Shown here: piece after piece, positions 57,901-60,900 of the stretch
Layout of the letters: every line of letters begins with the position of its first letter
Position numbering within the stretch: the first letter of the stretch is position 1
Assembly: GCF_011397635.1 (NCBI RefSeq)
Contig: NC_064760.1
Location: 31,391,856-31,455,855 of the forward strand
Reading direction: 5' to 3'
DNA from: Epinephelus fuscoguttatus
Taxonomy: Eukaryota > Chordata > Actinopteri > Perciformes > Serranidae
DNA: 64,000 bases
Made by a program: the position numbers and the translations under genes
The notes under the pieces: generated by a model
Database searches by the model: none
What the model was told of the DNA's origin: nothing
The model's input: only the letters and a program-made list of their open reading frames with translations

Positions 57901-60900
57901 TATGCCAAAAGTACCAGGATGTTCTATTGCATCTGGTCCTATTTTGCAGTATATAAGCCAGCATGCCTTTCTTGCTTTTCTGACCCACAATCCTTTGCGC
58001 AGGAGAAAATACATCACGTCGACTGACCTGCAAACAAATGACAGCCTGGCAGCTGATTGACAACTCTCAGAAGTCGCAATGACAGATGACAGCACATTCA
58101 AGTAACTGATGACCAGTCAAATAATAATGATATTAGGAATATTAATTGTTTAAAAAACAACAACAACAAAATAATTATAAAGATTACAAACAACGAAAGG
58201 ACAAATGAGAGAAAGGAGAAATGCACATGTCATTTTATTCTTGTGAATATAATATGTTAGGATCTACAAAGTGTGCATTTATAACTTAAAAGTTAAAATT
58301 ACATACATTGCAAAGTAACAACAGCAGTTGTCCGTCCGTCCATCCTTTCGTCCCATTATCGTAACTTTCAAGTACACCTGAAGATAATTTCCTCAGATTT
58401 GGCACAAACGTCCACTTGAACTCAAGGATGAATTGAATAGATTTCGGTGGTCAGAGGTCAAGGCCACTGTGACCTCATGCCCATCCCATTCCTATGAACT
58501 TGATATCTCAGGAAGGACTGGAGGGAATTTCTTTAGATTTGGCACAAACGTCCACTTCAACTCAAGCATCTTGATCTGGTGGTTAAAGGTCACTGTGACC
58601 TCACAAAACACTTTTTTGGCTATAACTCAAGAACTCATATGCTTATTATAACAAAATTTTACACAGATGTCTAACAGGATAAAATGACGAAGTGATGACA
58701 TTTCAGATCCAAAAGGTCAAAGGTCAGCTTCACTATGATATCGTGATGTTCTGCAGAAACACTTTTCTGGCAGTTTTTCAGGAACAGAGGGAGAAACATT
58801 TGGTCAGATACTGAATTGGTGACACTAATCTTGGGTGCTGATTGTACAGATCTCCTGAGCTGCTGGGTAGAAGACATTTGTGAAGCTTCCATGTTTGAGA
58901 ATTTGTAGCATCTTTGCAGCAACGTCCATATTTGAAGTATTGTCTACTGTCATGGCTACATATGAGTCTGGACAGACACGGATGTAGACTGAACGGTGAA
59001 TGGTCGGCGGAGGTGGCAATTCTAGTTCTCTGTTTGCATTTAAGATTATCTTAAGTTTCAAGGTTTTCATGCACTGCTCATACTTATCTCTATATATGTC
59101 TATTTGCAGGTTAGACTGAGCCCTCTCTGGCTTTTGTCTATAAACGAATTTATGTGAAGGTGACCTGTTGTTCCTTCTCTGTTTCTGTGTAGTGCCTGCA
59201 CCAACAGCTGGAGGTGATTCCTGGCTACGAGGAGCTTTTGGCAGACATTGTCAACATCTGTGTCGACTATTACGAGAACAAGATGTATTTAACACCCAGC
59301 GAGAAACACATGCTGCTTAAGGTACATGCATCCTCTTCTGCTGCCAGCCTATAACAGTCAATAGTGTGATCTTAAGCTGGCTAAATGTCCTTCGCTGGTG
59401 TAAAACAAATCGCCTCTGTGTGTGTGTGTCAGGTGATGGGCTTTGGTCTGTACCTGATGGATGGGAACGTGAGTAATATCTATAAACTCGATGCCAAAAA
59501 GAGGATCAACCTGAGCAAGATCGACAAGTTCTTCAAAGTGAGGCTTTTGCTTTTTCAGCGTCTCTTTTATCCAGTGTCATGTTTGTATGCATGACATGAG
59601 TGTGAGACATTTTTTTTTCTGTGGTTTTCAGCTTCAAGTGGTGCCACTATTTGGGGACATGCAAATAGAGCTGTCGCGCTACATCGAGACAAGTGCCCAC
59701 TACGAAGAAAACAAGTCCAAGTAAGAGGACGTGTCTAGCCATTTGCATTGTGTACAGAAATGCTCTCAACTACAAAACCAGCATTTCTTGACCACCGTGC
59801 CATCTGCTCCCACCCGCCCACAACCCTCTGTCTTCTCCATTTTGTGCCCAGGTGGACATGCACCCAGAGCAGCATCTCGCCACAGTATAACCTGTGCGAG
59901 CAGATGGTACAGATCAGGGAGGACCACATCCGCTTCATCTCAGAGCTGGCGCGCTACAGCAACAGCGAAGTGGTGACGGGCTCGGGCCTGGACAGCCAGA
60001 AGTCCGACGAGGAGTACAGGGAGCTGTTCGACCTGGCTCTGAGGGGTCTGCAGCTGCTGTCCAAGTGGAGCACGCACGTCATGGAAGTTGTGAGTGAAGC
60101 AAGAAATTGATTGTATCTTTGTGTGTGGGCGGGGGAAAAAAATGCTTGTGCAGCAGCCAGTATGAGTGGGCTTGAGGCTTGAAAAGTTTTTGATACGTCA
60201 TTGATTGTTGTAGCTTTGATCTATTTATGGCTCTCCTTGTCTCTTTCAGTACTCGTGGAAGCTGGTCCATCCCACGGATAAATTCTGTAACAAGGACTGT
60301 CCAGGCACAGCGGAGGAGTATGAGCGAGCCACGCGATACAATTACACCAGTGAGGAGAAGTTTGCCCTGGTGGAGGTCATTGCCATGATTAAAGGGCTGC
60401 AGGTAAAACAATGGTCACCCTGAGTAGCTCATCATGTCCTCAATATCTGATGGTCATTTTAAAACTTATGATATGAGATATGAGAACTTATGATATGATA
60501 TATATGATACTGATATGAGAGTGGTTTGAGGCATCTCATCTAACGCTCTCCAAGGAAGCAAATAAGTGCATCAATGTCAAATTATTTCTTCAATACCGAG
60601 CTGAATTTTCATGGCCCATATGACCAAGATGATGATGATCATGGCGCTGTGTAATGACCTGTTTAGGTTCTGATGGGCCGAATGGAGTCAGTGTTTAACC
60701 AGGCCATCAGGAACACCATCTACGCAGCGCTGCAGGACTTTGCCCAGATGACCCTCCGAGAGCCTCTGCGCCAGGCTGTACGCAAGAAGAAGAACGTCCT
60801 CATTAGGTGTGTATACGCAGTGATGATCTCTAAGAAAACGACTTTAATCTCATGGCTCCTGTCCTAAATACCTGAGGCACTGTTATAATCCCGTTTTCTT

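What the first reader, a model, noticed from the sequence alone, without database searches (positions are those of the whole stretch)
59686..59688. CYFIP2 A-to-I recoding site is fixed as glutamate in the genome
Seen: the ninth coding exon reads ATC GAG ACA, giving [11 protein letters not shown]. Known: human CYFIP2 has lysine 320 (AAG) here, and ADAR editing recodes it to glutamate in brain; this is one of the classic conserved recoding sites. Numbering is cross-checked by Arg87 and by the serine at human 968, which falls at 967 here, exactly one residue earlier because of the missing Gln. Inference: this fish makes only the edited-type protein. Either fish fixed the edited state in DNA, or glutamate is ancestral and editing restores it in tetrapods.
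Basis: partly seen in the sequence, partly recalled or inferred. Interest (0 to 1): 0.78.

Follow-up and report, generated by a model that had tools for sequence, protein, structure and literature searches.

The report
Fish CYFIP2 genomically encodes edited glutamate
In this fish the brain gene CYFIP2 already carries in its DNA the amino acid that mammals and birds make only by editing the RNA; this is real, but it was published for ray-finned fishes in 2015.

Summary
GAG lies at 59686-59688 in coding exon 9 of an intact cyfip2 gene; the partial model has 23 exons, all introns are GT-AG, and the Glu is residue 319 (human 320). The gene is CYFIP2, not CYFIP1, by tree and by its ITK-type and MED7 neighbours.

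The finding is not new. Fresard et al. 2015 (PMC4449034; passages and Discussion read) state that the CYFIP2 K/E editing site is genomically Glu in ray-finned fishes, "shared by all of them". My sample agrees: E in 16 of 16 ray-finned CYFIP2 rows; K in 20 of 20 readable tetrapod rows, the one coelacanth and the one shark row; K in 96 of 97 readable CYFIP1 rows.

"Glu ancestral, editing restores it" costs one more change but is not excluded.

One small addition: two lampreys also encode E in one copy; another lamprey copy and a hagfish encode Q. The orthology of these copies is unresolved. No editing-type RNA fold above background was found around the site.

The parts
59686..59688 (+). GAG codon (Glu, model residue 319 = human residue 320), the CYFIP2 K/E editing position
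   Evidence: Sequence read; residue number
59632..59720 (+). Coding exon 9 of cyfip2 ([30 protein letters not shown]); acceptor directly before CTT, so the Gln of FFKQLQ is absent
54930..63909 (+). cyfip2, coding exons 1-23 (gene continues beyond the window)
   Evidence: Spliced model, 968 aa, all introns GT-AG; identical to Scortum barcoo P0241 over 968 aa; tree
35058..43189 (+). ITK-type tyrosine kinase gene (tblastn extent), the upstream neighbour that marks the CYFIP2 locus
   Evidence: tblastn with CYFIP2 plus ITK-type read-through predictions P0210, P0237, P0244; kinase domain PF07714 in both stretches scanned. The name ITK is recalled from the domain make-up and the human order.
30365..31162 (-). 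MED7 open frame (stop to stop), further synteny marker
   Evidence: Pfam PF05983, 165.6 bits

Best explanation
This is the ordinary cyfip2 gene of a (probably percomorph) teleost, in which the first A of the ancestral AAR (Lys) codon is replaced by G. The protein is permanently the 'edited-type' Glu form and ADAR has no substrate at this base. Shown: the Glu codon here, Glu in all 16 ray-finned CYFIP2 rows sampled, and Lys in the other jawed-vertebrate CYFIP2 rows read and in nearly all CYFIP1 rows. Inferred: one A-to-G (Lys to Glu) substitution fixed on the ray-finned stem before sturgeons split from teleosts (one sturgeon row). Not shown: whether RNA editing already existed at that time (so that DNA took over an edited state) or the substitution was independent of editing.
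For: Codon and gene model. E in 16 of 16 ray-finned CYFIP2 rows, including the sturgeon row P0121. K in 20 of 20 readable tetrapod CYFIP2 rows (5 more of the 25 lack the exon), 1 of 1 coelacanth, 1 of 1 shark and 1 of 1 unnamed row. Ray-finned CYFIP1: 31 K and 1 T of 32 readable rows out of 35. Fragments that look like invertebrate CYFIP: 26 K, 3 R, 1 N of 30 (all). The sturgeon row has RYIET with Ala at the position where teleosts have Ser, and keeps FFKQLQ, so its Glu is older than those teleost changes. The fish Glu was reported independently in PMC4449034.
Against: Only one named shark CYFIP2 row (P0228) and one coelacanth row (P0208) were readable. No gar, bowfin or bichir CYFIP2 row appeared by name among the listed hits; the database is clustered at 90% identity and each search lists only the best 120. 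The sturgeon record is labelled UNVERIFIED_CONTAM by its source. Lamprey E rows (P0173, P0176, P0242) leave room for Glu being older.
Confidence: 0.85

Rival explanations
1. Glu is the ancestral CYFIP2 state of vertebrates; sharks and lobe-finned vertebrates went back to Lys, and ADAR editing in birds and mammals restores the old residue (restorative editing).
For: Two lamprey species encode Glu in one CYFIP copy (P0173 and P0242 Lethenteron, P0176 Petromyzon). A tree with this lamprey copy joined to jawed-vertebrate CYFIP2 is not rejected (p-AU 0.336).
Against: The best trees group the cyclostome copies with each other (SH-aLRT 87 and 85), not with CYFIP2. On the accepted species order (recalled) this reading needs three K/E changes instead of two. 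Shark and coelacanth CYFIP2 (one row each) and 96 of 97 readable CYFIP1 rows have Lys.
Confidence: 0.1
2. Assembly error, paralogue (CYFIP1) or pseudogene misread as CYFIP2.
For: None found.
Against: Intact 968-aa frame with all introns GT-AG. Same residue in 16 of 16 ray-finned CYFIP2 rows, while ray-finned CYFIP1 has K in 31 of 32 readable rows. ITK-type and MED7 neighbours.
Confidence: 0.02
3. The site is simply labile and near-neutral, so Glu in fish, Glu or Gln in cyclostomes and editing in amniotes are unrelated events without functional meaning. (This can be true together with the best explanation, which is about what happened, not why.)
For: Lys, Arg, Asn, Gln, Glu and Thr all occur at the site across the rows read. 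PMC4449034 reports K320E as tolerated, benign and neutral by three predictors (passage).
Against: Within each jawed-vertebrate group the residue is nearly fixed (E 16/16 in ray-finned CYFIP2; K 96/97 in CYFIP1), which suggests constraint.
Confidence: 0.3

Closest known systems
CYFIP2 K320E A-to-I recoding site (human, mouse, chicken)
   Same: Same gene, exon and residue; the Glu here is the residue that editing produces.
   Different: Here Glu is in the DNA; there is no adenosine at the first codon position and so no editing substrate at that base.
Fresard et al. 2015 report of genomic Glu in ray-finned fish CYFIP2 (PMC4449034)
   Same: The same observation, stated for all ray-finned fish then in Ensembl.
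   Different: That text says Glu is only present in ray-finned fishes; its main text does not contain the words lamprey, shark or coelacanth (its S1 Fig alignment was not seen). Two lamprey species also encode Glu, and a second lamprey copy and a hagfish encode Gln.
Human CYFIP1 (PDB 3p8c chain A)
   Same: The aligned exon 9-10 stretch is closely similar (191 bits over 108 aa) and the site aligns without a gap nearby.
   Different: Lys at the site, residue 320.

Membership tests
CYFIP2 orthologue | Groups with jawed-vertebrate CYFIP2 and not CYFIP1 in a protein tree | tested here: met
   CYFIP2 group SH-aLRT 100 with the window protein inside it
CYFIP2 orthologue | Lies next to ITK, with MED7 nearby (human order recalled) | tested here: met
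   ITK-type exons at 35058-43189, MED7 at 30365-31162
A-to-I recoding site (CYFIP2 K/E) | Adenosine at the first base of the codon | tested here: not met
   GAG, not AAG; this is the homologous position, not an editing site at that base
A-to-I recoding site (CYFIP2 K/E) | Site lies in double-stranded pre-mRNA formed with a complementary sequence | tested here: inconclusive
   568-nt fold z = -0.71, 25 of 100 shuffles at least as stable; best duplex -35.9 kcal/mol, reached by 19 of 40 random 51-mers from the same gene region although these were scanned more coarsely; no tetrapod positive control was run
A-to-I recoding site (CYFIP2 K/E) | A/G mixture in RNA against A in DNA | not testable with these tools
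   No RNA reads are available

The most novel reading that the evidence does not exclude
The Lys at this site was lost from the genome more than once in early vertebrates: to Glu in ray-finned CYFIP2, to Glu in one lamprey copy, to Gln in the hagfish and in a second lamprey copy. The amniote editing event would then be one of several convergent routes to a non-basic residue here. It could be an ancient edited state that different lineages wrote into DNA.
Probability: 0.2. Interest if true: 0.5.

Novelty: already known. Interest (0 to 1): 0.25.

Why it matters
It is a clean natural comparison for a classic recoding site: a lineage that makes only the edited-type protein next to lineages that make a tuned mixture. 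Such cases bear on whether recoding editing restores an old residue, diversifies the protein, or is a step that DNA later takes over. The comparison itself has been in print since 2015. The added points are the Lys in CYFIP1, in one shark and in one coelacanth CYFIP2, the likely placement of the change before the sturgeon-teleost split, and the non-Lys residues of cyclostomes.

Tried and rejected
Paralogue or pseudogene reading: rejected by tree, synteny and intact frame.

Local editing-type fold or complementary sequence in the fish gene: nothing beyond background. In one search the site was scanned in steps of 15 nt and the 40 random 51-mers in steps of 30, which favours the site, and still 19 of 40 reached its energy. 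No tetrapod genomic sequence was at hand as a positive control, so loss of the structure is not shown.

Restorative history (Glu ancestral): tested by a constrained tree; not rejected (p-AU 0.336), but less simple. The unconstrained tree needs 4 changes among E, K, Q and R rows (the one N row was left out of that count).

Papers. Searches: (listings and abstract starts only). CYFIP2 + RNA editing + lamprey and CYFIP2 + RNA editing + teleost gave 0 papers each. The broad search (at least 4 of 6 terms) listed 15 of 3,141 papers and none of those 15 contains CYFIP2. Zebrafish editing atlas PMC8096273: passages only, no occurrence of cyfip in the main text; supplements not seen. Passages only: PMC12295206, PMC3391646, PMC4053846, PMC10984384. 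PMC4449034: passages and the whole Discussion section; figures and supplements not seen.

Rows dropped before the counts: 5 of 25 tetrapod CYFIP2 rows and 8 of 105 CYFIP1 rows lack a readable exon 9; those 8 include the four Callorhinchus rows. All 120 + 34 different rows listed were looked at; the searches list only the best 120 of 754 and of 723 hits. I assigned rows to groups by hand from source names and identity; the 105 CYFIP1 rows are those left over, all at most 89.3% identical to the window protein.

Full report
What is there. The codon at 59686-59688 is GAG in the context TAC ATC GAG ACA AGT GCC CAC. A spliced model of 23 coding exons (54930..63909, + strand) gives 968 residues with every intron GT-AG and no frame break; the gene runs on past the window. 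The Glu is residue 319 in coding exon 9 (59632-59720). The offset of one comes from a missing Gln: exon 8 ends FFK and exon 9 begins at CTT directly after its AG. Thirteen of the 16 ray-finned CYFIP2 rows also read FFKLQ; the sturgeon reads FFKQLQ and two Oryzias predictions are disturbed just before the exon. Readable tetrapod CYFIP2 rows read KQLQ, one of them (P0184) with an insert before it. Several mammal CYFIP1 records exist with and without this Gln as isoform X1/X2 pairs (for example Ictidomys and Marmota), which looks like a CAG-CAG acceptor choice (inference).

Which gene. The window protein is identical over 968 aa to a Scortum barcoo prediction (P0241) and falls inside the CYFIP2 group (SH-aLRT 100), apart from CYFIP1. 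Upstream lie an ITK-type tyrosine kinase gene (35058-43189, kinase domains) and MED7 (30365-31162, minus strand). That these are neighbours of human CYFIP2 is recalled, but three read-through predictions joining CYFIP2 with ITK-type domains in Albula, Camelus and Caranx (P0210, P0237, P0244) show the same neighbourhood.

How far the Glu extends. Searches listed 154 different CYFIP proteins besides the window. They were sorted by hand, by source name and identity, for the counts. Ray-finned CYFIP2: E in 16 of 16. Tetrapod CYFIP2: K in 20 of 25, the other 5 lacking the exon. Coelacanth CYFIP2: K, 1 of 1. Shark (Chiloscyllium) CYFIP2: K, 1 of 1. Unnamed CYFIP2: K, 1 of 1. Cyclostomes: 3 E and 2 Q of 5. 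Remaining 105 rows (CYFIP1): 96 K, 1 T (a goby), 8 unreadable. Ray-finned CYFIP1 within these: 31 K, 1 T, 3 unreadable of 35. Thirty fragments that look like invertebrate CYFIP: 26 K, 3 R, 1 N. So a basic residue is the older state and, among jawed vertebrates, Glu is a mark of ray-finned CYFIP2. The sturgeon row has Glu together with the older ELA-RYI and FFKQLQ forms, which puts the Lys-to-Glu change before the sturgeon-teleost split and argues against teleost contamination of that record, although its source labels it UNVERIFIED_CONTAM.

Already published. Fresard et al. [quoted passage not shown] One sentence of their Discussion words the change the wrong way round (Glu to Lys), but the sense is clear. 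The finding is thus a correct rediscovery in one more fish. That human, mouse or chicken edit this site is also in passages seen.

The two histories. With Lys in CYFIP1, in shark and coelacanth CYFIP2 and in the invertebrate-looking fragments, one Lys-to-Glu change on the ray-finned branch is simplest. A complication not in the 2015 text that I read: Petromyzon and Lethenteron encode Glu in one CYFIP copy (P0176, P0173, P0242), while a Lampetra copy (P0212) and the hagfish Myxine (P0243) encode Gln. In the trees these cyclostome copies group with each other (SH-aLRT 87 and 85) and with neither jawed-vertebrate gene; the order of the three groups is unsupported. A tree joining the lamprey Glu copy to CYFIP2 is 5.45 log-likelihood units worse and is not rejected (p-AU 0.336). 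On the recalled species order, independent gains of Glu cost two changes and ancestral Glu with two reversals costs three. So 'ancestral Glu, restored by editing' is less simple but not excluded. The statement in PMC4449034 that Glu is only in ray-finned fishes needs a lamprey footnote.

RNA structure. Folding 568 nt around the site gives z = -0.71, with 25 of 100 shuffles at least as stable. The best partner for the 51 nt around the codon within 57300-62400 reaches -35.9 kcal/mol, matched or beaten by 19 of 40 random 51-mers of the same region, which were scanned more coarsely. The six inverted repeats found in 58900-60700 have arms of 14-25 nt and none covers the codon. With G in place of A no such structure is needed for this base. 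Because no tetrapod genomic control was available, its loss in fish cannot be claimed.

Mechanism and meaning. Shown: Glu is encoded. Follows directly: ADAR cannot act on this base and the protein is always the Glu form at this codon, unlike the mixture in mammals, where one review gives 4% editing at mouse e15 rising to 75% at p21 (PMC3391646 passage). Inferred: one substitution on the ray-finned stem. Open: whether editing came first. The effect of the residue on the WAVE complex, Rac1 or FMRP was not tested here; three predictors quoted in PMC4449034 call it tolerated, benign and neutral.

Verdict. Observation confirmed, interpretation sound, already known; interest is low apart from the cyclostome lead.

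Noticed in passing
59538-59634: The exon 9 acceptor lacks the Gln codon: the window and 13 of 16 ray-finned CYFIP2 rows read FFK-LQ, the sturgeon and readable tetrapod rows KQLQ, and mammal CYFIP1 isoforms show both, suggesting an old CAG-CAG acceptor pair that teleost CYFIP2 lost.
   Followed up: partly
no window position; proteins P0173, P0176, P0242, P0212, P0243: Cyclostome CYFIP copies carry Glu (lampreys, 3 rows of 2 species) or Gln (a second lamprey copy and a hagfish) at the editing position, never Lys in the five rows read.
   Followed up: partly
no window position; protein P0255: A goby (Neogobius) CYFIP1 prediction has Thr at the position where the other 96 readable CYFIP1 rows have Lys.
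   Followed up: no
20720-21154 and 28037-28405, minus strand: A LON substrate-binding domain and a RING finger on the same strand, perhaps one LONRF-type gene (the gene name is recalled).
   Followed up: no
52370-52477: A 36-residue piece of the Caranx ITK-CYFIP2 read-through prediction (P0244, residues 546-581) matches here, between the two genes, at 78% identity; it may be a mispredicted exon of the fish records.
   Followed up: no
53190-53438: Diverged tandem array, period 81, 3.1 copies, 72% matches, about 1.5 kb before the cyfip2 start codon.
   Followed up: no
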